Below, piece after piece: positions 10,319-23,668 of a DNA stretch of 39,742 nucleotides. Position 1 is the first letter of the stretch. Each line of letters opens with the position of its first letter. The notes beneath the pieces are model-generated. The model was not told the DNA's origin and made no database searches. It was given only the letters and a program-made list of their open reading frames with translations. Origin of the DNA: Bacteroides sp. (GTDB lineage: Bacteria > Bacteroidota > Bacteroidia > Bacteroidales > SM23-62); NCBI GenBank assembly GCA_011053095.1, contig DRHS01000260.1, positions 1-39,742 of the forward strand, written 5' to 3'. The translations under genes were made by a program, and so were the position numbers.

Positions 10319-12322
10319 ATGCGAGAACAGATAAAGAAACATAAATTACATATTAATCGCAGGAGATTTATTGGCAAACTTGGGATTGGAGTCGGAGCTG
10401 CAGCACTTAGTACAACTTTGCTTTCCAAAATACTCAAAGGAAATGAACGAAGTAAGGAGCCTGGTCATCTAAGGAATTCGGCAGGCTCGAAGAAATATCA
10501 TGTATCGGTCACCGGCATTGACAGTAACCCGGGAACAATGTCGAAACCGTTCAAAACAATTTCGAGGGCAGCGGAAGTAGCTCAATCGGGTGATACGATC
10601 ACCGTCCACCAGGGAGTCTATAGAGAACGTATCAATCCACCACGTGGTGGAATTAGCAATGACAAACGAATAGTATATCAGGCGGCCGAAGGAGAGGAAG
10701 TAGTACTTAAGGGATCAGAAGTAGTTAAGGGGTGGCAGCACGAGAGGTCGGATACATGGCAGGTAAGCCTTCCCAATAGTTTCTTCGGTGATTTCAACCC
10801 ATTCAATACTTTAATCAGTGGTGATTGGTTCAACTCTAATGACCGTGAGCATCATACCGGTGCAGTGTACCTTAACGGGCACTGGCTTTACGAGGCAGCA
10901 AAGCAAGATGAGCTGTTGGAACCAGCGGGCAAAAAACCCTTATGGTTTGGCAAGGTAGATGATATGAACACTACAATCTGGGCGCAGTTCACAGGTGTTG
11001 ATCCGAATAAAGAAAATGTTGAAGTTAATGTGCGTCAGTCGGTATTTTATCCGAGTGAACCGGGTATCAACTATATAACTGTTCGAGGATTTGAGATGGA
11101 GCATGCTGCCACGCCCTGGGCACCGCCTACCGCAGAGCAAATCGGCCTGATCGGTACGCATTGGTCCAGGGGCTGGGTCATCGAGAACAATACCATCCGC
11201 TACTCGGTTTGTTCGGGCATTACTCTTGGCAAATATGGTGATGAGTTTGACAATAAGTCCTCGAACTCGTCCGAGGGATATGTCGAGACGATTAAACGTG
11301 CATTGAAAAATGGATGGTCGAGTGAAAACATTGGCCATCACCATGTACGTAACAACCACATCTCCCATTGCGAGCAAGCTGGGATTGTCGGCTCTATGGG
11401 TGCGGCCTTCTGCACAATTACCGGCAACGAGATCCACGACATTCACATGCGACGCCGGTACAGCGGTATGGAAATGGGCGGGATCAAGATCCATGGGGCA
11501 ATCGATACCATCATCAGCCACAACCACATCTATCGCACGTAGCGGGGGATTTGGCTGGATTGGATGGCCCAGGGCGCGCGTGTTACCTGCAACTTGCTAC
11601 ATGACAACGAGGCCACACAAGACCTGTTTGTCGAAGTCAATCACGGACCCTTCCTGATCGATCACAACTTTTTCCTGTCCGGCAACGGGCTCAACGATAT
11701 ATCTCATGGTGGGGCCTATGCCCACAACCTGTTTGCCGGACGGATAATCGCCTGGCCAAATACACGCAACACGCCTTATCACAAAGCCCATTCCACAGAA
11801 ATAGCCGGAATGGACACATTCCCCGGAGGAGATAGCCGGTTTTACAATAACATTTTCGTTAGTCAGGAGAAGCCTGTTCCATGGCCGGAACGTATCCCAA
11901 AACAGCTTGACAACCAGAACTATTTCGGTTTGGCAACTTATTACAACTTAGGCCTGCCTGTTTACATGTCAGGTAATGTATTCCTCGGCCAGGCAGAGCC
12001 TTGTTCGCATGAGGAAAATCCACTCGTACAACCAGAGTTTAATCCTGGGATCAAACTTGAAGAAAGATCTGATGGTTGGTATCTCAAAATGCAGTTCGAC
12101 AAAATATGGGCCGACCACAAAGGACCGCTGGTCAAGAGTGAGATGCTTGGTAAAGCAAAAATCCCGGACTTGCCCTACGAAGATCCTGACGGAAAGCCCT
12201 ACCAACTCGACAATGATTATTTTGGCAATGTGCGAAAAACAATCAATCCCTTCCCTGGTCCGCTCAATGAACAGAAAGAAGGTGAACAATTTATCAAAGT
12301 CTGGCCGAAGAATATGTATTAA
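10319..12322 (+). pseudogene. GH120 beta-xylosidase-like beta-helix protein interrupted by in-frame TAG (Tat-type copy)
   Basis: This is a full-length GH120-like right-handed beta-helix gene (667 codons) in one frame, broken only by TAG at 11540-11542 (codon 408). Upstream is a twin-arginine signal, [11 protein letters not shown] plus a hydrophobic stretch, unlike the Sec signals of the other three copies. It continues with [13 protein letters not shown] and the family N-terminal domain. Downstream of the stop the frame resumes as RGIWLDWMAQGARV and keeps both expected catalytic residues, Asp at codon 414 and Glu at codon 439 (FVEVNHGP). Translation stopping at the TAG would therefore lose the active site. 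Gene callers may show two pieces, 10319-11542 and 11564-12322. TAG is used as a normal stop at 20637 and 36323. It starts 2 bases after the esterase, and its middle is richer in G+C than copies downstream. Confidence 0.75.
11540..11542 (+). other. In-frame amber codon inside GH120-like gene
   Basis: The TAG lies between NHIYRT and RGIWLDWMAQG. In the intact paralogues the same position is a sense codon within IHNANKAVW (gene at 26712) or IHNAFKGIW (genes at 32141 and 34298). No frameshift is needed to continue the protein. A single base change such as TCG or AAG to TAG would explain it. Confidence 0.85.
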
Positions 12323-12340
12323 ACTACTAAATTGAAACCA

Positions 12341-13777
12341 ATGAAAACAGTTCGAATTTCCCTGGTAGCACTTTTACTGGTCTTGCTTAATTCCTGTGGA
12401 AGCAACAACGGAAAGCAAAAGGAAATCAGCTCTGAAAAGAATCCGGACGATCCGGGACTTCAACTAATGGGAAACCGGTTTTTTACATTCAATACCGTGG
12501 TCCGCGTCAACCAGATCGAGACATCACGCAACGAAGCTCATGGTGAGGATGAATCTGCTATTCATACCCCTGCAGAAGCCCGCGTCTTTCGGGAAGCGGT
12601 GGAAAAAGCCTGGCCGGGTGCTCGAATGACCTGGTCATTTAGCTGGCTTGCATTAAATGATCAGCGGACTAATTATAAAGAACTCAGGGAACTGATCGTT
12701 TCCTATCATAAGAAATACGGGGATGAGATCACCTTTATCCCCGGGGGGTATTTTGCCAATATGTATAATTCCCGGGAACAGGTAAACCGGGACCTGCATG
12801 ACGGACTGCAACTGGTTTCCGGGATGGTTGGTGACGGATACCGTCCCAAATCCGTCCTTGCGGGGTTCCTGTCTGCTGAAAACCTGAGGTATCTGGCCGA
12901 AGAAGAAGATATCCATGTCTGCCAGGGGAATATCTGGAGCCAGTATGCTGTGGACAATGGTGACGGCGAGGGATCAATATCCTATCCCTACTATCCTTCA
13001 CTGGAACATTTTTGCAAGCCAGCTCAGGGCGAAGAAGATTTTATTGACATTGTTAACCTGGATGGCTGGACCATCGATTTTTTAAACGGAATGCATCCGG
13101 GTGGGAGAAGAATTAATGACGATTGGTGCGGCAGCCGGCAGGGAGTAGGTCCTATTGAAACTGTTATAAGATTAGGAACTGAGCGAGGAACAACAGAGAT
13201 GATTGCCACAACAGCTGCACATTTCGATAAGGGATTTGAGCTCAATAATTTTGCATGGGTAACCTGTTGCTGGGAAATGTCACTGGTCGAAGCACGGAAA
13301 ATATATGGTTATAAAGGACGCAATGGATTGGATGGTCTGGAAATCTGGTTCAGTGAAATGCGTAAACGATGGCCGGATGCAAAATGCATCACCCAGGGAG
13401 AATTTGGATTGTTGTGGCGGGAACACTTTAAAAACAACGATGAAATTGATTATCAATTTGTCATGCGGGGTTCAGGCATATGCGGCTCCGACCCCGACCT
13501 GGAGATCCGGTGGTTCATGAACAAAGATTTCAGGCTGGCACTTTTGAGGAACTGGAAAGAAAACTCCCCGGAAAAACTAATCGATTTTACCCGGTATGAT
13601 CTGGAAGCTACCGAACCTGCCGATCCTGAACCGGGCCAGCATTCCCGAAACTGGAGTTTGATGAACCGGCTGAACCAGAAAGGTACCCGGCCACAGGATA
13701 AACCGATAGATATTTATGAATTGAGTACCGAAGAACAGGCAATAATCAAACGACGTTATCCTGGGATGATAAACTGA
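12341..13777 (+). CDS. DUF3863/DUF3864-like lipoprotein of unknown function
   Basis: This 478-residue lipoprotein has lipobox LNSC with the cysteine at residue 19 when translation starts at ATG 12341. An in-frame TTG nine bases upstream (12332) is possible but less likely. The sequence matches my recollection of the Bacteroidota DUF3863/DUF3864 proteins. It starts with FFTFNTVVRVNQIE, contains TWSFSWLALND, FIPGGYFANMYNSREQVNRD and SVLAGFLSAENLRYLAEE, and has several Asp/His/Trp-rich segments such as DDWCGSRQGVGP and TTAAHFDKGFELNNFAW. This looks like a barrel with a polysaccharide-deacetylase- or GH57-like layout, but no catalytic assignment can be made from sequence alone. It follows the GH120 gene by 18 bases and is probably co-expressed as an envelope glycan-processing factor. 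The DUF assignment is from memory. Confidence 0.7.
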   Translation: MKTVRISLVALLLVLLNSCGSNNGKQKEISSEKNPDDPGLQLMGNRFFTFNTVVRVNQIETSRNEAHGEDESAIHTPAEARVFREAVEKAWPGARMTWSFSWLALNDQRTNYKELRELIVSYHKKYGDEITFIPGGYFANMYNSREQVNRDLHDGLQLVSGMVGDGYRPKSVLAGFLSAENLRYLAEEEDIHVCQGNIWSQYAVDNGDGEGSISYPYYPSLEHFCKPAQGEEDFIDIVNLDGWTIDFLNGMHPGGRRINDDWCGSRQGVGPIETVIRLGTERGTTEMIATTAAHFDKGFELNNFAWVTCCWEMSLVEARKIYGYKGRNGLDGLEIWFSEMRKRWPDAKCITQGEFGLLWREHFKNNDEIDYQFVMRGSGICGSDPDLEIRWFMNKDFRLALLRNWKENSPEKLIDFTRYDLEATEPADPEPGQHSRNWSLMNRLNQKGTRPQDKPIDIYELSTEEQAIIKRRYPGMIN

Positions 13778-13861: not shown

Positions 13862-13870
13862 AAAAGGAGG
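13862..13870 (+). promoter_or_regulatory. Strong Shine-Dalgarno site of MttB-family gene
   Basis: AAAAGGAGG lies 7 bases before the ATG at 13878. Nearly all other genes in the window have AT-rich leaders without such a motif. It fixes the start and sets this gene apart from its neighbours. Confidence 0.75.
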
Positions 13871-13877
13871 TTTTAAA

Positions 13878-15305
13878 ATGGCAAGGGCAAAGACAGTTTT
13901 CTTAAACCAACAGGAGATGGATCTGATTCATGCTCAAAGTATAAAGAGCCTGGGGGAAATTGGTATTAAAGTACACAGCAAGCCTGTTCTTGAAATACTT
14001 GAGAAGAACGGAGCGAGTGTAGATTACGATGCGATGGTTGCCAAAATTCCTGAAAAGATGGTTAACCAGGCTCTTGAAAGCGTTCAAAAGGAATTTACGC
14101 TATGCGCCCGCGATCCAGGGCATGATCTGAAGATTCCTACAAAAACATATCCCTGGGTGACTACCAGCGGACTTGCAGTTTTTGTTAATGATTTTGACAC
14201 CGGAGAATACCGGGGTTCCACCAGAAAGGATATTGCCGCATTTACAAGACTGGGAGATGCAGTTGATACAGTTGATTTTCTATGGACGGCCTTAACCGCA
14301 AGAGATGTTACAGCCTATGCCCATGGTCCACATGAATTGTGGTTGACCATGCAAAATACTACCAAGCATGTTCAGGGTGTTACAGCGCAAAGTGCTGAAG
14401 ATGCAAAAGTGCAGATTGAGCTGGCGGCTCTTATTGCTGGAGGAAAAGAAGAGTTGAGAAAACGTCCCCTCTTTTCTGTAATTGCATGTCCGATCTCACC
14501 ATTAACCTATGAGGAAGGCTCTATTGAAGCGCAGGTAGAACTGGCAAAAGCCGGGATACCGGTTGCTTCCATGTCCATGTCAATAGGTGGCGTGTCTGCT
14601 CCTGTTCCTGTGGCAGGAATGATGGTAAATGCTAATACCGAAAATCTGGGAAGTATTGTCATCTCACAAATGGCAGCACCGGGTGCACCCCACATCTATT
14701 GCTCAGAGTCGGCACCAATGAATATGGCTACAGCCAGCCTTAATTATAGTTCAGTTGATAAGAGTTTTATAAGCATCGGTCTGGCACAAATGGCAGAAAG
14801 ATACAATCTCCCATCTCTTGTTGCAGATGGCGGATGGGGTAAAAAGGTTGAAGGCGGAATTTCAGGAGTGATGATCCCTGCTACTCAACTTACAGGAATT
14901 ATGGGTGGATCAGACATAGTAACCGGTCTGGGATCAGTTGATTCTGCTAAAGGAATCTCTTTTGAACAGTTTATTATTGATTCCTATATGTGGGATTGCA
15001 GTAAGAACTATTTACACGAAGTTGTAATATCAGAAGAGAGGATAGGTCTGGATGCGGTTAAAGAAGTTGGGCATGGCCATGATTTTCTGACGCATCCTCA
15101 CACTTTAAACTATATGACGGGCGAGCTCACATTCTGGGAAAAGGAAAAGCTTGACCTGCTGGAGATGGACCCTGAAGAAATGCCTGCTGAAGCAAACAGA
15201 ATAGTTAAGGGCATATTGGAAAAGCATCAGGTTGAGCCGCTGGCAAATGATCTCCTGAAACAGGGCGATGCCATTATCTCGAAGTACGAAGATATAGTGG
15301 GTTAA
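13878..15305 (+). CDS. MttB-family (trimethylamine methyltransferase-like) corrinoid methyltransferase, non-pyrrolysine
   Basis: This 475-residue protein has no signal peptide and is probably cytoplasmic. The sequence follows the MttB superfamily: SLGEIGIKVHSKPVLEILEKNG at the N terminus, the TTSGLAVFVNDFDTG block, ACPISPLTYEEGS, and a C-terminal part with GGSDIVTGLGSVDSAKGISFEQ. In true trimethylamine MttB proteins an amber-encoded pyrrolysine sits in this last region; here the segment is D355-S-A-K358-G and no TAG occurs. It therefore belongs to the large non-Pyl group, of which characterised members demethylate quaternary amines such as glycine betaine and pass the methyl group to a corrinoid protein. 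The substrate cannot be deduced, and no corrinoid protein or activase gene is visible nearby. A 100-base gap precedes it, and a Gfo/Idh/MocA gene follows after 33 bases. Confidence 0.85.
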   Translation: MARAKTVFLNQQEMDLIHAQSIKSLGEIGIKVHSKPVLEILEKNGASVDYDAMVAKIPEKMVNQALESVQKEFTLCARDPGHDLKIPTKTYPWVTTSGLAVFVNDFDTGEYRGSTRKDIAAFTRLGDAVDTVDFLWTALTARDVTAYAHGPHELWLTMQNTTKHVQGVTAQSAEDAKVQIELAALIAGGKEELRKRPLFSVIACPISPLTYEEGSIEAQVELAKAGIPVASMSMSIGGVSAPVPVAGMMVNANTENLGSIVISQMAAPGAPHIYCSESAPMNMATASLNYSSVDKSFISIGLAQMAERYNLPSLVADGGWGKKVEGGISGVMIPATQLTGIMGGSDIVTGLGSVDSAKGISFEQFIIDSYMWDCSKNYLHEVVISEERIGLDAVKEVGHGHDFLTHPHTLNYMTGELTFWEKEKLDLLEMDPEEMPAEANRIVKGILEKHQVEPLANDLLKQGDAIISKYEDIVG

Positions 15306-15338
15306 TAAAGATATCCGAACTTGAGAAAATAAGCAATT

Positions 15339-16631
15339 ATGAAAAGAAGAGATTTTTTAAGAAGTACCGCTGCATTTGCATCGGTAACCATGCTGCCCTC
15401 ATCGGTATGGGCACTGACAAAAAACGGAAAACTCAGGACAGCTCATATTGGAGTAGGAGGAATGATGGGAGGAGAAGACCTGTTAAGTATATCATCACAT
15501 CCTATGGTTGAAGTAACTGCCTTATGCGATGTTGATTCAACATTCCTGGCTGCGGCTAAAAAGCTTCATCCCGGAGCAAAAACATTTACTGATTACCGGA
15601 GAATGTTTGACACTATTGGAAAGGACATTGATGCAGTTTGCGTTTGTACGCCAGACCACACGCATGCTCCGGCGTCCATAATGGCAATGAATATGGGTAA
15701 GCCTGTTTATTGCCAGAAACCTTTAACGCATCATGTTTCAGAAGCCAGGGCAATGAAGAAGTTAGCCGCAGATAACAATCTAATAACTCAAATGGGTATT
15801 CAATGTCACTCCAGCCCCGAGTATCGCCAGGCAGTTGATCTTATCAAGTCAGGGATTGTCGGTAAGGTCTCCACTGTAAGAGCATGGTCGCCTAAAAATT
15901 GGGGTTACGACGGGGATGCTCCGGTAGGAAGTGATCCAATACCTGATACATTAAATTGGAATTTATGGCTGGGGACATCTCCGGAAAGGGATTATAAAAA
16001 AGATTTGTACCATCCGGCAAACTGGAGGAAATTGCTGGATTATGGATGTGGGACATTGGGAGATATGGGAGTTCATATTTTTGATACACCCTACACGGCC
16101 CTTGAATTAACCGTGCCAAATACAGTAAAAACAAAATGCAGAAAACCCAATGGATTCAGCCATCCTGAAAATAATATCGTTGAATATGAATTCCCGGAAA
16201 CAAAATATACCACGGAAAATTTTAAATGGGTATGGTATGATGGGCCCGGAGCTCCAAAGAAACATCGTGATCTGAAATTACCTGACAAGGAAATACTTCC
16301 GGAACAGGGTGCCATGTTTATTGGTGAGAAGGGGAATTTATTACTCCCGCACTGGGACTATCCCAGGTTAATTGTCAATGGTAGATTTGAAAAGATTGAT
16401 TTCCCCGAAATGGACGAGAATGACCACTATCATCAGTTTGTTGATGCCTGTTTGGGGAAGGATAAGTGCAGTGCACCGTTCTCATATGCCGCAAATCTGA
16501 CAGAGGCCATTCTCCTGGGTGTAATTGCAAACCGGTTCCCCAATAAAATCCTGCATTGGGATATCGGATCTGCAAAATTTGTTGAGTCTGAAGCAAATGA
16601 ATTACTGGACTTTAAGTACAGAGATTTTTGA
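15339..16631 (+). CDS. Gfo/Idh/MocA-family oxidoreductase with Tat signal
   Basis: This 430-residue protein begins with a twin-arginine signal, MKRRDFLRSTAAFA, ending near SSVWA, so it is probably exported folded with its cofactor. The mature part starts with a Rossmann fold (HIGVGGMMGG, residues 37-45) and has CTPDHTHAP and YCQKPLTHHVSEAR with the family Lys127 in the KP motif. The C-terminal half has GCGTLGDMGVHIFDTPY, typical of the exported subgroup. Members oxidise, reduce or rearrange sugars with tightly bound NAD(P). Some exported ones act as retaining glycosidases through oxidation-elimination (family knowledge). Its specific substrate is unknown. It lies 33 bases after the MttB gene, but one product would be cytoplasmic and the other periplasmic, so direct coupling is doubtful. 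Confidence 0.88.
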   Translation: MKRRDFLRSTAAFASVTMLPSSVWALTKNGKLRTAHIGVGGMMGGEDLLSISSHPMVEVTALCDVDSTFLAAAKKLHPGAKTFTDYRRMFDTIGKDIDAVCVCTPDHTHAPASIMAMNMGKPVYCQKPLTHHVSEARAMKKLAADNNLITQMGIQCHSSPEYRQAVDLIKSGIVGKVSTVRAWSPKNWGYDGDAPVGSDPIPDTLNWNLWLGTSPERDYKKDLYHPANWRKLLDYGCGTLGDMGVHIFDTPYTALELTVPNTVKTKCRKPNGFSHPENNIVEYEFPETKYTTENFKWVWYDGPGAPKKHRDLKLPDKEILPEQGAMFIGEKGNLLLPHWDYPRLIVNGRFEKIDFPEMDENDHYHQFVDACLGKDKCSAPFSYAANLTEAILLGVIANRFPNKILHWDIGSAKFVESEANELLDFKYRDF

Positions 16632-16709: not shown

Positions 16710-18062
16710 ATGGAATTTCTAATAAGGATTTCAAAGAGTTTAATAATACTTTTTGTCGCTCTCGATTTAATAAGCTGTGCTGATAAGGTTGGCTCAAAGC
16801 CTTCATCAGATGAACAAACAAACAATAACTTCTCGCTTGTATATGCCATTAACGAAAAACCTAGTGGTATGAAAGAAGCTGATCGATTAGGAATATGGTA
16901 TCCTATCTCCGATTTTGAGGCTGTTGGATTGTACCTACCCCCGGGTCAACCCATCGAAATTGATGTTAAGAATATTGAGGGAAACTCAGAACCAAAATTG
17001 TTAGTCGGCACATATTCCAGATATAAAGCCGGAGATGTACCCACTACAATTAATCTGGTAACTGGAAACAATACAGTAACTGATTACAAGGGAGGTCTAT
17101 TGTATTTAAGATATGTCACCGATGATATCCCCTCCGGTAAGGTTGAGGTAACCTTTAAGGGGGGAGAGCCTGTTCCCGTTTACAAGCTGGGAGAAACGAG
17201 CCATGAAGAGTGGCTTGAAATGCTGGACACCATGTCTTTTCAGGATGTTCAGATGATTAGTGAAAGAACCATGGTCGTTGTAAGCAAGGAAACGGCTTTG
17301 AAATTTAAAGATGTTAGCCAGGATGAAATGTTGATTAAACTGGATAGTGTTTCGGACATTGAAGATTACATAAGTGGAATTGATGGATCATCCGAACTCC
17401 ACAAATCCAATGTTCACAAGTTACTGATTACTGAAACCGCGGATCCTGATTATTTTATGGCGGCTAATAGATATCGTGTAATGGTAACACCTATTGCTTG
17501 TGACAGAATTATGGACCCCCAAAGAATATCCAATAATAGTTGGGGATTATGGCATGAAATGGGTCATATGCGACAAACGATAAGATGGGATTGGGCTGAA
17601 GTGGATGAGGTTACAGTTAATATCTATTCTCTGTCAGCCTTATATGGTTTTAATGGAGATATGACCTGGCTAAAGGGTAACGATATTTGGGACGTACTTG
17701 AAGACTACTTCCAGGTACCCCTTGATGATCGAAATTACAATACCTCCGGTATGTTAAAAGGGAAGGGGCGTCTGGCAATGTTTCGTCAACTCTGGATGGC
17801 TTTTGGGGATGAATTCTACATTAAAGTACATCAGCTTTCGCGAGAGGATAACGGAGAGAGCCAAAAGGTAAAAGCAAGAAGTTTCAAATATGGAAATGAA
17901 AAAATGGCCTACTTCATGCTTATATCTTCAAAGGCATCCGGGTACAACTTAAGGAACTTTTTCATCCAGTGGGGTTTCAAACTTCCCCAGGAGGATTTTG
18001 ACGCCTTAGATGCCCTGGACTTGCCGGATCCAACAATTGATCTGCTCAAGTTGAGGGAATAA
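16710..18062 (+). CDS. M60-like (enhancin-type) zinc metallopeptidase lipoprotein
   Basis: This 450-residue lipoprotein has lipobox LISC with the cysteine at residue 23. The HExxH zinc site is H282-E-M-G-H286, and the probable third ligand is Glu300 in the EVDEVTVNIYS segment, the arrangement known for M60/M60-like peptidases. A beta-rich N-terminal part (VGLYLPPGQPIEIDV, TINLVTGNN, GLLYLRYV) precedes the catalytic domain, as usual in the family. Characterised M60-like enzymes cut heavily O-glycosylated proteins such as mucins. In this locus it suggests that the target glycan may be carried by protein. It is followed 39 bases later by a heparinase-type lyase gene, also a lipoprotein. Confidence 0.85.
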   Translation: MEFLIRISKSLIILFVALDLISCADKVGSKPSSDEQTNNNFSLVYAINEKPSGMKEADRLGIWYPISDFEAVGLYLPPGQPIEIDVKNIEGNSEPKLLVGTYSRYKAGDVPTTINLVTGNNTVTDYKGGLLYLRYVTDDIPSGKVEVTFKGGEPVPVYKLGETSHEEWLEMLDTMSFQDVQMISERTMVVVSKETALKFKDVSQDEMLIKLDSVSDIEDYISGIDGSSELHKSNVHKLLITETADPDYFMAANRYRVMVTPIACDRIMDPQRISNNSWGLWHEMGHMRQTIRWDWAEVDEVTVNIYSLSALYGFNGDMTWLKGNDIWDVLEDYFQVPLDDRNYNTSGMLKGKGRLAMFRQLWMAFGDEFYIKVHQLSREDNGESQKVKARSFKYGNEKMAYFMLISSKASGYNLRNFFIQWGFKLPQEDFDALDALDLPDPTIDLLKLRE

Positions 18063-21239: not shown

Positions 21240-23668
21240 ATGAAAATAAGATCTCTGATCTCAATCGCAATAGTTTTATTTTCAGTGACCAGCTTCCCTG
21301 GATGCAAAGAATTGGCAACGGTTCGCATTTCCAATTTGACCTGCGAGTTTCTCACATCTCCACAAGGAATTGATGAGACGGGTTCACGATTGAGCTGGCA
21401 GCTGAGATCAGACATTCGCGGACAGAAACAAACTGCCTATCGCCTGCTCGTGGCAAGTTCTCCGGAAATGCTGGCAAAAGACCAGGGTGATTACTGGGAT
21501 TCAGGTATAATTGAATCAGACCAATCCAGGCTTGTTGAATACAAGGGCAAAACCCTTCAATCCCGTGAAGAATGCTTCTGGAAAGTCATGGTATGGGACA
21601 GGGAGGGTATTCCATCAGCATGGTCTGAACCTGCATTCTGGTCAATGGGATTGCTTGAAAAAGAAGACTGGACCGCCCGCTGGATCGGATCACCGGACTC
21701 TGTTACAGCACCTTATTACAGACATTCATTTTATTTGGATGATATGCCTGAACGTGCAACTGTCTACCTTGCATCACTGGGTTATTTCGAGCTTTACATT
21801 AATGGGGAAAAGCTGGGCAATGAAGTTCTCGCTCCTGCAGTATCAAATTACAGCAGACGCAGCTATTATCAGACTTACGATGCAACCACTTACCTGAAAA
21901 AAGGAAAGAACAGTATCGGGGTTTGGATGGGAACAGGATGGTATACTCCCGGCTTGCCGGCATTGCACCGGTATCTGTTGAGCAGCTGGACGATACAACC
22001 CTTATGGTTGATTTTGGAACCAACCTTACCGGTATGCTGAATATTAGTTTCCATGGCCTTGTTGCGGGACAGAAAATCACCATTCACTATGCGGACCTGG
22101 ACGGCCGGGACCCGGAAGAAGCATGGCGCCTCAGGATGGAGCATAAAGGATTTTCCACCTATAATCAACTTGATGAATTTATCTCAGCCGGGGAAAAAGA
22201 GGAACAGTTTGAAAATGTGTTCAACTATCATGGCTTTCGGTATGCACTGATCGAAGGTTTAACATATCTGCCCGAAAAGGAAGACCTGCTGGCAATACCC
22301 GTGGAAACGGAAATTCATGAAACCGGTTCATTCAGTTGTTCCAACGAGCTTTACAACCAGATCCATCAGATGGTACGGTGGACCTACCGGGCGCTGAACC
22401 TGGGCGGTCAGACAGTAGACTGTCCCCAACGCGAAAGACTCGGTTACGGCGACGGGCAAACGATCATGGATGTGGGTTGTTACAATTTCGATGCATCCAC
22501 CCTGTACACCAAATGGTCTGAGAACTGGTGGGACGAACAGAAGGAAGATGGGTTTGTCCCCTTTGTAGCACCCACTCCCCACGGAACCGGAGGAGGACCG
22601 GCCTGGGGGGCAATGAGTATTATGGTTCCCTGGAAAACTTACCTTTTCTACAATGATACAACACTGCTCGAGACAGGGTATCCTTATATGAAGAAATACA
22701 TTGCATACCTTGGCTCACATTGTGAAAATGGTGTGCTTCAGGATATTTTTCCCGGTGAAAAATGGACGAACCTGGGTGACTGGGTGCCTCCCGGCAGGGG
22801 AATGGACAAGAGTGAGTGGGTAGATGATAAGTCCCGGCGTTTTTTCAATAATTGTTACCGGGTTCACCTGCTGCAGGTTATGATGAAAATTGGAAGGATC
22901 CTGGGCATGGGCGATGATGTCGCGGTATTCAGGCATGAACTTGAGATTGCCCAAAAAGCCCTGCATGAGAAATGGTTCAATCCTGCCGACACTACCTATG
23001 CGAACGCGGAACAGCCTTACCTTATCTTCCCCTTACAGACCGGAGTAATCCCCGGCGAGCTTGAGGACGAGATGTTCGAAAAGTATGTTCACACTATGCT
23101 GGTTAAGGATCAGGGGCACCTGAACACAGGAATGATCGGCACGCAGATCACGTTTGATTACCTGCTTGATAAGGATCGGAATGACCTGATCGATATTATG
23201 GTTAATCAAAAGACCTATCCCGGTTGGGGATATATGATAGAAAAAGGTGCAACAACCTGCTGGGAACAGTGGAATGGATACTATTCACAGATACACTCCT
23301 GCTTCCCATACATAGGTGGCTGGTTTTACCGTGGCCTGGCCGGGATCCAATGGGATCCTGAGAGTCCCGGATTTAAAAATATTATTCTTCGCCCTGGACT
23401 GGTGGAGAGTGTTGACTGGGTGGAATGCAGGTACGAGTCCCATTACGGCCCCATTATCAGCAACTGGAAAATTGAGGCAGATGAATTTGAATGGGAAATA
23501 AGAATTCCCGTAAATTGTACTGCAACTGTGTTTATTCCGGGAGAAGACATTGAAGTTGATGGGATGGATCTGTCCGAATTAAAAGACCTTGTCTTCCTGC
23601 GCCGGGAAAATATCCACAGTATTTACAGGGTGGGATCCGGGGATTATACGTTCAGCAGCAGGCATTAA
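21240..23668 (+). pseudogene. GH78 alpha-L-rhamnosidase disrupted by internal deletion and frameshift
   Basis: The N-terminal part, 21240 to about 21965, encodes a signal peptide with a possible lipobox (SFPGC) and the GH78 N-terminal domains up to VWMGTGWYTPGLP. The frame then runs into nonsense and stops at 22040. In the next frame, from about 21967, the protein resumes as APVSVEQLDDTTLMVDFGTNLTG and continues through an intact (alpha/alpha)6 catalytic domain to 23668. That domain includes VDCPQRERLGYGDGQ and TTCWEQWNGYYS, which hold the family's acidic residues. Compared with the intact GH78 at 36385, about 100 residues of the jelly-roll domain between the GTGW motif and the pre-catalytic beta-domain are missing. 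A non-triplet deletion of about 300 bases at 21950-21970 explains both changes. Gene callers would show 21240-22040 and 21923-23668. The product is probably inactive. Confidence 0.82.
21945..21970 (+). other. Deletion/frameshift junction in GH78 gene
   Basis: The upstream frame is good GH78 sequence to GWYTPGLP and the downstream frame is good GH78 sequence from PVSVEQ. Only a few bases separate them, where the intact paralogue has about 100 residues. The short sequence around the junction is rich in repeated GCCGG and TTGC words, which could favour slippage or misassembly. Confidence 0.75.

What the first reader, a model, noticed from the sequence alone, without database searches (positions are those of the whole stretch)
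13878..16631. MttB-family methyltransferase gene inside a glycan-degradation locus, with no corrinoid partner
A non-pyrrolysine MttB homologue, with a strong Shine-Dalgarno unlike its neighbours, sits between a DUF3863 lipoprotein and an exported Gfo/Idh/MocA enzyme. Known relatives demethylate quaternary amines such as glycine betaine. In this context it might handle a methylated compound released with the glycan, for example betaines or an algal osmolyte, but this is a guess. It could also be a separately acquired insertion.
Basis: partly seen in the sequence, partly recalled or inferred. Interest (0 to 1): 0.65.

Follow-up and report, generated by a model that had tools for sequence, protein, structure and literature searches.

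The report
Mobile demethylase gene in sugar-degradation locus
A Bacteroidales bacterium carries, among its enzymes for breaking down rhamnose-rich glycans, a borrowed vitamin-B12-dependent demethylating enzyme whose partner proteins lie elsewhere in the genome, suggesting that it strips a methyl group from something that comes with the glycan and turns it into formate and energy.

Summary
The gene is real: an intact, non-pyrrolysine MttB-superfamily methyltransferase (13878-15305), with the window's only perfect AGGAGG Shine-Dalgarno. "No corrinoid partner" holds only for this contig. The same genome, on another contig, encodes one short corrinoid protein, an MtgA-like transferase, methylene-THF reductase, formate-THF ligase, a formate channel and a RACo-type activase: a complete methyl-to-formate route. 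The gene is not a random insertion. Five close copies (four relatives 88-93% identical to this one; dN/dS 0.10-0.21) from three Bacteroidales genomes all lie in the same kind of glycan locus (DUF3863, GH106, GH120-like, M60). They form one clade nested among Aminicenantes and archaeal homologues, so the gene was acquired horizontally. Several neighbours moved too: synonymous divergence 0.3-0.6, against saturation for MetH. The four residues proposed to bind glycine betaine in MtgB are absent, so glycine betaine is unlikely. Best reading: a substrate-specific arm of a shared corrinoid demethylation system, acting on a small methylated (probably quaternary-amine) compound freed with the glycan. 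The substrate is not identified; an O-methyl sugar is not excluded. The genome's 16 or so UroD-like putative corrinoid methyltransferases, one inside a rhamnose operon, hint at a wider anaerobic demethylation theme.

The parts
13878..15305 (+). non-pyrrolysine MttB-superfamily corrinoid methyltransferase, 475 aa, no signal peptide seen
   Evidence: PF06253 E 6e-61; AF2 model pLDDT 89.5, TM 0.90 to MttB 7xcl and 0.87 to MtgB 9yce; dN/dS 0.10-0.21
13865..13870 (+). perfect AGGAGG Shine-Dalgarno, the only one among 17 starts inspected; similar strong SDs precede the L004 and L009 homologues
14832..14834 (+). codon of Gly319, the position of pyrrolysine 334 in M. barkeri MttB
12332..13777 (+). DUF3863/DUF3864 lipoprotein; directly upstream of MttB here and in L004, L005, L007
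   Evidence: PF12979 E 8e-107, PDB 3lm3 relative; synteny
15339..16631 (+). exported Gfo/Idh/MocA oxidoreductase, resembles BT_2158-type glycoside 3-dehydrogenase (below that family's cut-off); its 5' end survives in L006 between MttB and M60
16710..18062 (+). M60-like peptidase lipoprotein; follows MttB in L006 as well
   Evidence: PF13402 E 3e-39; 83% identity in L006
10319..12322 (+). GH120-insertion beta-helix protein, interrupted by an in-frame TAG at 11540-11542; homologues without this stop lie upstream of DUF3863-MttB in L004 and L007
23684..26698 (+). GH106 alpha-L-rhamnosidase; its orthologue directly follows MttB in L004 and L005
   Evidence: PF17132 E 4e-151; 84% identity, dS 0.45 in L005
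35..8818 (+). upstream glycan genes: sortilin-type protein and two GH106; homologues lie in a like locus of G100 (L111)

Best explanation
The gene encodes a functional cytoplasmic methyltransferase I of the MttB superfamily, recruited by horizontal transfer into a mobile, rhamnosidase-rich glycan-degradation island. Exported enzymes of the island (GH106, GH78, GH120-like, sulfatase, M60 peptidase) free a small methylated compound, most likely a quaternary amine other than glycine betaine. It is imported, and MttB passes one methyl group to the Co(I) of the genome's single short corrinoid protein (contig C140). An MtgA-like enzyme moves it to tetrahydrofolate; MTHFR, FolD and formate-THF ligase oxidise it to formate with ATP gain; FocA exports the formate; the RACo-type protein reactivates the corrinoid. 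Shown: gene, fold, selection, presence of the module, horizontal spread, synteny. Inferred: that it uses this corrinoid protein, the substrate class, the direction of C1 flow.
For: MttB fold: TM 0.90 to MttB and 0.87 to MtgB. Purifying selection, dN/dS 0.10-0.21. Own genome: corrinoid protein, MtgA-like, MTHFR, Fhs, FocA and RACo in one gene row on C140, FolD on C2; apart from MetH this is the only B12-binding_2 hit and the window MttB is the only intact MttB. C140 also carries a protein with a T9SS-type tail and LipA, and its tetranucleotide profile fits the window (r 0.71). All five close Bacteroidales copies lie in glycan loci with the same kinds of neighbours. MttB, GH106c, M60 and the L004 GH120 share dS 0.28-0.58 between genomes whose MetH is 65% identical with saturated dS. 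Precedent for a shared, unlinked corrinoid partner: MtyB, MtcB and MtpB of E. limosum all use MtqC/MtqA (PMC8604678). One type of APC amino-acid permease lies near this MttB clade in L004, L005 and L009, two phyla, which fits an amino-acid-like substrate. The Aminicenantes copy L008 lies with a corrinoid protein, a non-Pyl MtmB homologue, an aminotransferase and aldehyde dehydrogenases, an amine-catabolism setting; a non-Pyl MtmB acts on tetramethylammonium and choline (PMC13044021).
Against: The corrinoid module also occurs in Bacteroidales without any MttB (G013, 99% complete), and MttB does not co-occur with the corrinoid protein beyond chance in 99 genomes (p 0.27), so this is not an MttB-dedicated partner. 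The window genome lacks the close APC permease. The substrate cannot be read from a characterised relative, since the nearest are about 29% identical. The genome is a MAG (83% complete, 300 contigs), so linkage of C140 and the window rests on binning. DUF3863 has much higher dS (1.66) than MttB (0.29), so not every neighbour moved in step.
Confidence: 0.6

Rival explanations
1. Osmolyte scavenging by hitch-hiking. MttB demethylates a free quaternary amine that is merely abundant in the same biomass; co-location with glycan genes reflects shared mobility, not shared chemistry.
For: Aminicenantes copies sit outside glycan loci, with amine-type or permease genes; the DNA match covers the gene alone in L008; DUF3863 is much more diverged than MttB.
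Against: Five of five Bacteroidales copies in three genomes lie in the same kind of glycan locus, and GH106c, M60 and one GH120 show similar dS, so selection seems to keep them together.
Confidence: 0.25
2. Repurposed O-demethylase. In this clade the MttB fold demethylates an O-methyl sugar (for example a methylated rhamnose) from the glycan.
For: No pyrrolysine and none of the four proposed betaine-binding residues; locus rich in rhamnosidases; the genome carries many UroD-like putative corrinoid methyltransferases, one in a rhamnose operon.
Against: The MttB-superfamily members characterised in the papers read here act on N-methyl substrates (PMC8604678, PMC12155760); O-demethylation would more naturally belong to the UroD-like enzymes; the nearby APC permease suits an amino-acid-like solute.
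Confidence: 0.12
3. Chance insertion without function in the locus, or a decaying gene.
For: A separate MttB relic on contig C235 is clearly decayed, and two glycan genes of the window carry a stop or frameshift.
Against: Intact ORF, dN/dS 0.10-0.21, repeated in five like loci.
Confidence: 0.03

Closest known systems
MtyB / MtcB / MtpB of Eubacterium limosum (gamma-butyrobetaine, carnitine, proline betaine methyltransferases)
   Same: Non-pyrrolysine MttB superfamily; shared unlinked corrinoid protein and THF methyltransferase (MtqC/MtqA); MtyB and MtcB genes lie beside a transporter (PMC8604678)
   Different: Those feed acetogenesis; here the predicted route ends in formate, the host is a glycan-degrading Bacteroidales, and the gene lies among glycoside hydrolases. 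Their sequences could not be compared here
MtgB of Desulfitobacterium hafniense (glycine betaine methyltransferase, PDB 2qne/9yce)
   Same: Same fold (TM 0.87); corrinoid and THF partners of the same type
   Different: 26-28% identity; Y94, N199, R309 and H345, proposed to bind betaine (PMC6855144), are G, C, L and a gap here
MttB of Methanosarcina barkeri (trimethylamine methyltransferase, PDB 7xcl)
   Same: Best structural match (TM 0.90); Gly110 and Met249 of the active site conserved
   Different: Pyl334 is Gly, Tyr364 is Thr; TIGR02369 score 362 is below the cut-off of 525
MthB of E. limosum (phosphocholine methyltransferase)
   Same: MttB superfamily member in a choline-to-THF pathway (PMC12155760)
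   Different: Gene cluster with a choline kinase; none seen beside the window gene; sequences not compared

Membership tests
MttB superfamily (COG5598/PF06253) | Pfam MTTB profile over gathering score along the full length | tested here: met
   206 bits against cut-off 25, residues 7-461
MttB superfamily (COG5598/PF06253) | MttB-type TIM-barrel fold | tested here: met
   AF2 model TM 0.90 to 7xcl, 0.87 to 9yce, 0.86 to 4yyc
MttB superfamily (COG5598/PF06253) | Methylates a cognate Co(I) corrinoid protein | not testable with these tools
   Candidate partner present in the genome on C140; no assay
Trimethylamine methyltransferase MttB (TIGR02369) | Pyrrolysine at the position of Pyl334 | tested here: not met
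   Gly319; no in-frame TAG
Trimethylamine methyltransferase MttB (TIGR02369) | Score over the curated equivalog cut-off | tested here: not met
   362 against 525 bits
Glycine betaine methyltransferase MtgB | Residues proposed to bind betaine (Y94, N199, R309, H345; from docking, PMC6855144) | tested here: not met
   G, C or S, L/Y/M and a gap in the nine-member clade; all four kept in 4yyc
Corrinoid-dependent methyl-transfer system (MT-I, corrinoid protein, MT-II, activase) | Short corrinoid protein, pterin-binding MT-II and RACo/RamA-type activase in the genome | tested here: met
   C140: PF02607/PF02310, PF00809 and PF14574 over cut-offs. The RamA and AcsV equivalog cut-offs are not reached, so the activase is RACo-type only
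Corrinoid-dependent methyl-transfer system (MT-I, corrinoid protein, MT-II, activase) | Physical or functional pairing of this MttB with that corrinoid protein | not testable with these tools
   Only indirect: it is the sole short corrinoid protein found

The most novel reading that the evidence does not exclude
Some Bacteroidales demethylate glycans or glycoprotein substituents with vitamin-B12-dependent methyltransferases placed inside glycan loci: UroD-like enzymes for O-methyl sugars and this new MttB clade for a methylated amine bound to or released with the glycan. All would feed one corrinoid/THF/formate module, an oxygen-free counterpart of the cytochrome P450 demethylation of methoxy sugars.
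Probability: 0.35. Interest if true: 0.82.

Novelty: new variant of a known kind. Interest (0 to 1): 0.6.

Why it matters
Aerobic marine bacteria remove the methyl group of the methoxy sugar of porphyran with a cytochrome P450 and oxygen (PMC10033563, abstract); how anaerobes remove methyl groups from glycans was not found in the library searched. A mobile corrinoid methyltransferase kept inside glycan islands, with a methyl-to-formate module in the same genome, gives a testable candidate. It would tie glycan turnover to one-carbon and formate flux without oxygen, and it adds an apparently non-betaine clade to a large enzyme family with few known substrates.

Tried and rejected
Glycine betaine as substrate: rejected on pocket residues, with the caveat that the reference residues come from docking. 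Riboswitch control: none found by Rfam in the window, C140 or the relatives at gathering thresholds. A second intact MttB in the genome: the C235 hit is a frameshifted, deleted relic beside a saccharopine-dehydrogenase-like gene. A dedicated MttB-corrinoid pairing across Bacteroidales: not supported (p 0.27). Close APC permease in the own genome: only distant ones, 25%. Contamination as explanation for C140: not favoured. Trimethyl-hydroxylysine of diatom cell walls (PMC4557024) was considered as a substrate because of the M60 peptidase and sulfatase: nothing here tests it. Enrichment of glycan genes around UroD-like genes: 14 of 88 against 7 of 128 neighbours (p 0.011), but some reference proteins came from those same loci, so this is suggestive only. 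Literature searches for corrinoid or UroD enzymes in polysaccharide loci gave nothing relevant.

Full report
WHAT IS THERE. The window is one whole contig (C260) of a 4.99 Mb MAG, 83% complete, 300 contigs, of Bacteroidales type judging by its gene content and closest relatives. The ORF at 13878-15305 is an intact 475-aa protein matching Pfam MTTB over its full length at E 6e-61. No signal peptide is seen, unlike its lipoprotein and exported neighbours (sequence). Its AlphaFold model (pLDDT 89.5) matches MttB of M. barkeri at TM 0.90 and MtgB of D. hafniense at TM 0.87. The pyrrolysine position is Gly319 and there is no in-frame TAG. It alone among 17 inspected starts has a perfect AGGAGG. The neighbours are a DUF3863 lipoprotein, an exported Gfo/Idh enzyme and an M60-like peptidase, within a locus of GH106 (three), GH78 (two, one frameshifted), GH120-insertion beta-helix proteins, a sulfatase, a SASA esterase and a heparinase-like protein.

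THE MISSING PARTNER EXISTS. Contig C140 (locus L015) carries in a row: a GTPase-like gene, a GntR/LacI-type regulator, a short corrinoid protein (PF02607/PF02310), a pterin-binding MtgA-like methyltransferase, an MTHFR with the MTHFR C-terminal domain family, formate-THF ligase, a formate channel and a RACo-type activase. FolD lies on contig C2. This is a complete route from methyl-corrinoid to formate plus ATP; its use in that direction is inference. Apart from MetH it holds the only B12-binding_2 hit in the assembly. C140 also encodes a protein with a T9SS-type tail and LipA, and its tetranucleotide pattern correlates with the window at r 0.71, so it is probably the same organism. Unlinked, shared corrinoid partners are known in this family: three E. 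limosum MttB-type enzymes share MtqC and MtqA (PMC8604678).

HISTORY. A pattern-based scan of 84,980 species genomes found seven related loci. Four are in two other Bacteroidales MAGs (88-93% identity), two in Aminicenantes (87 and 75%), one in an archaeon (43%). In a sample of 393 Bacteroidales genomes only 13 had any MttB homologue, and none but this one the close clade. In the tree the five Bacteroidales copies form one clade (100/99) nested inside the Aminicenantes sequences, with archaeal sequences outside. The direction is therefore most simply Aminicenantes-like donor to Bacteroidales, which could also explain the strong Shine-Dalgarno (L009 has GGGAGGGAGG). Within Bacteroidales all five copies lie in glycan loci: GH120-DUF3863-MttB-GH106 (L004), DUF3863-MttB-GH106 (L005), GH120-DUF3863-MttB (L007), SusD-MttB-M60 (L006), and the window. 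In L006 about 20 bp of the start of the Gfo/Idh gene remain between MttB and M60, so the order MttB-Gfo/Idh-M60 is probably ancestral to both.

SELECTION AND MOBILITY. MttB dN/dS is 0.10-0.21. Synonymous divergence from the window copy of MttB (0.28-0.58), GH106c (0.45), M60 (0.38) and the L004 GH120 (0.52) is far below that of the housekeeping gene MetH (65% amino-acid identity, dS saturated). These genes were therefore exchanged between distant Bacteroidales long after those lineages split. DUF3863 (dS 1.66-1.88) and the L007 GH120 (1.42) are exceptions, unexplained. The Aminicenantes copy L008 differs from the window by dS 0.36, so that transfer is of similar age, and there the DNA match covers the gene alone.

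SUBSTRATE. The nearest characterised proteins available for comparison are about 29% identical, so the substrate cannot be read off by homology. The four residues proposed by docking to bind glycine betaine in MtgB (Y94, N199, R309, H345; PMC6855144) are conserved in the S. meliloti structure 4yyc but are G, C, L and a gap here, the same or similar in the nine-member clade. Of the MttB active site, Gly110 and Met249 are kept, Pyl334 and Tyr364 are not (roles from PMC9842639). Glycine betaine and the Pyl mechanism for trimethylamine are thus unlikely. An APC amino-acid permease of one type lies near this MttB clade in L004, L005 and L009 (92% and 68% identical to the L005 protein, two phyla), and L008 lies with a corrinoid protein, a non-Pyl MtmB homologue, an aminotransferase, a MMSDH-family and a PuuC-like aldehyde dehydrogenase. 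Both favour an amino-acid-like methylated amine. The window genome lacks the close permease.

THE WIDER SETTING. The corrinoid protein is not specific to MttB: close homologues occur in 17 of 99 sampled Bacteroidales, of which only two have MttB. All 17 have UroD-family proteins other than HemE, against 7 of 82 without it (Fisher p 6e-14; data). These genomes are related, so the p-value is not that of independent events. The window genome has about 16 such proteins, most with an HxCG motif; by general knowledge (not tested) a His-x-Cys motif is a zinc site in corrinoid methyltransferases of the UroD family. One lies in a GntR-UroD-RhaT-RhaM-RhaA-RhaB rhamnose operon, others beside GH106, GH95, GH2, sulfatases or M60. 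Enrichment of glycan genes around them is suggestive only. The most economical picture is one corrinoid/THF/formate hub served by many substrate-specific methyltransferases, several of them in glycan or sugar loci; the window's MttB would be one of them.

VERDICT. Observation confirmed; interpretation partly supported. A new clade of a known enzyme family in an unusual and recurrent setting. No substrate is shown.

Noticed in passing
L192:7289-12726 (G000 contig C191): A UroD-family protein (PF01208) sits in an L-rhamnose operon (GntR-UroD-RhaT-RhaM-RhaA-RhaB), suggesting demethylation of methyl-rhamnose before rhamnose catabolism.
   Followed up: partly
G000 loci L186-L199: About 16 non-HemE UroD-family proteins in one Bacteroidales genome, many with HxCG and many near GH106, GH95, GH2, sulfatase or M60 genes; across 99 Bacteroidales they co-occur with the short corrinoid protein (17/17 against 7/82).
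   Followed up: partly
window 11540-11542: In-frame TAG interrupts the GH120-insertion beta-helix gene 10319-12322; relatives L004 and L007 have no stop there.
   Followed up: yes
window 21240-23668: A GH78 rhamnosidase is split by a frameshift into 21240-22040 and 21923-23668.
   Followed up: yes
L014:4775-6887 (G000 contig C235): Decayed second MttB (frameshifts, internal deletion), running in frame into what looks by eye like a permease C-terminus, beside an intact saccharopine-dehydrogenase-like gene; L005 has a similar set intact (APC-SDH-MttB).
   Followed up: partly
window 12332-13777 against L004, L005, L007: DUF3863 has dS 1.7-1.9 between loci whose MttB and GH106 neighbours have dS 0.3-0.6; its own history or unusually fast synonymous change is unexplained.
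   Followed up: no
L105, L106, L155 (other Bacteroidales): Clusters with MetH, MTHFR, a corrinoid protein, two MttB-type proteins, a hydantoinase-like protein and an MtgA-like protein; apparently a different MttB-type system linked to methionine synthesis.
   Followed up: no
G103 (L010, archaeon, 1.42 Mb): A small archaeal genome with 21 MttB-family matches, three of them with an in-frame TGA reported.
   Followed up: no
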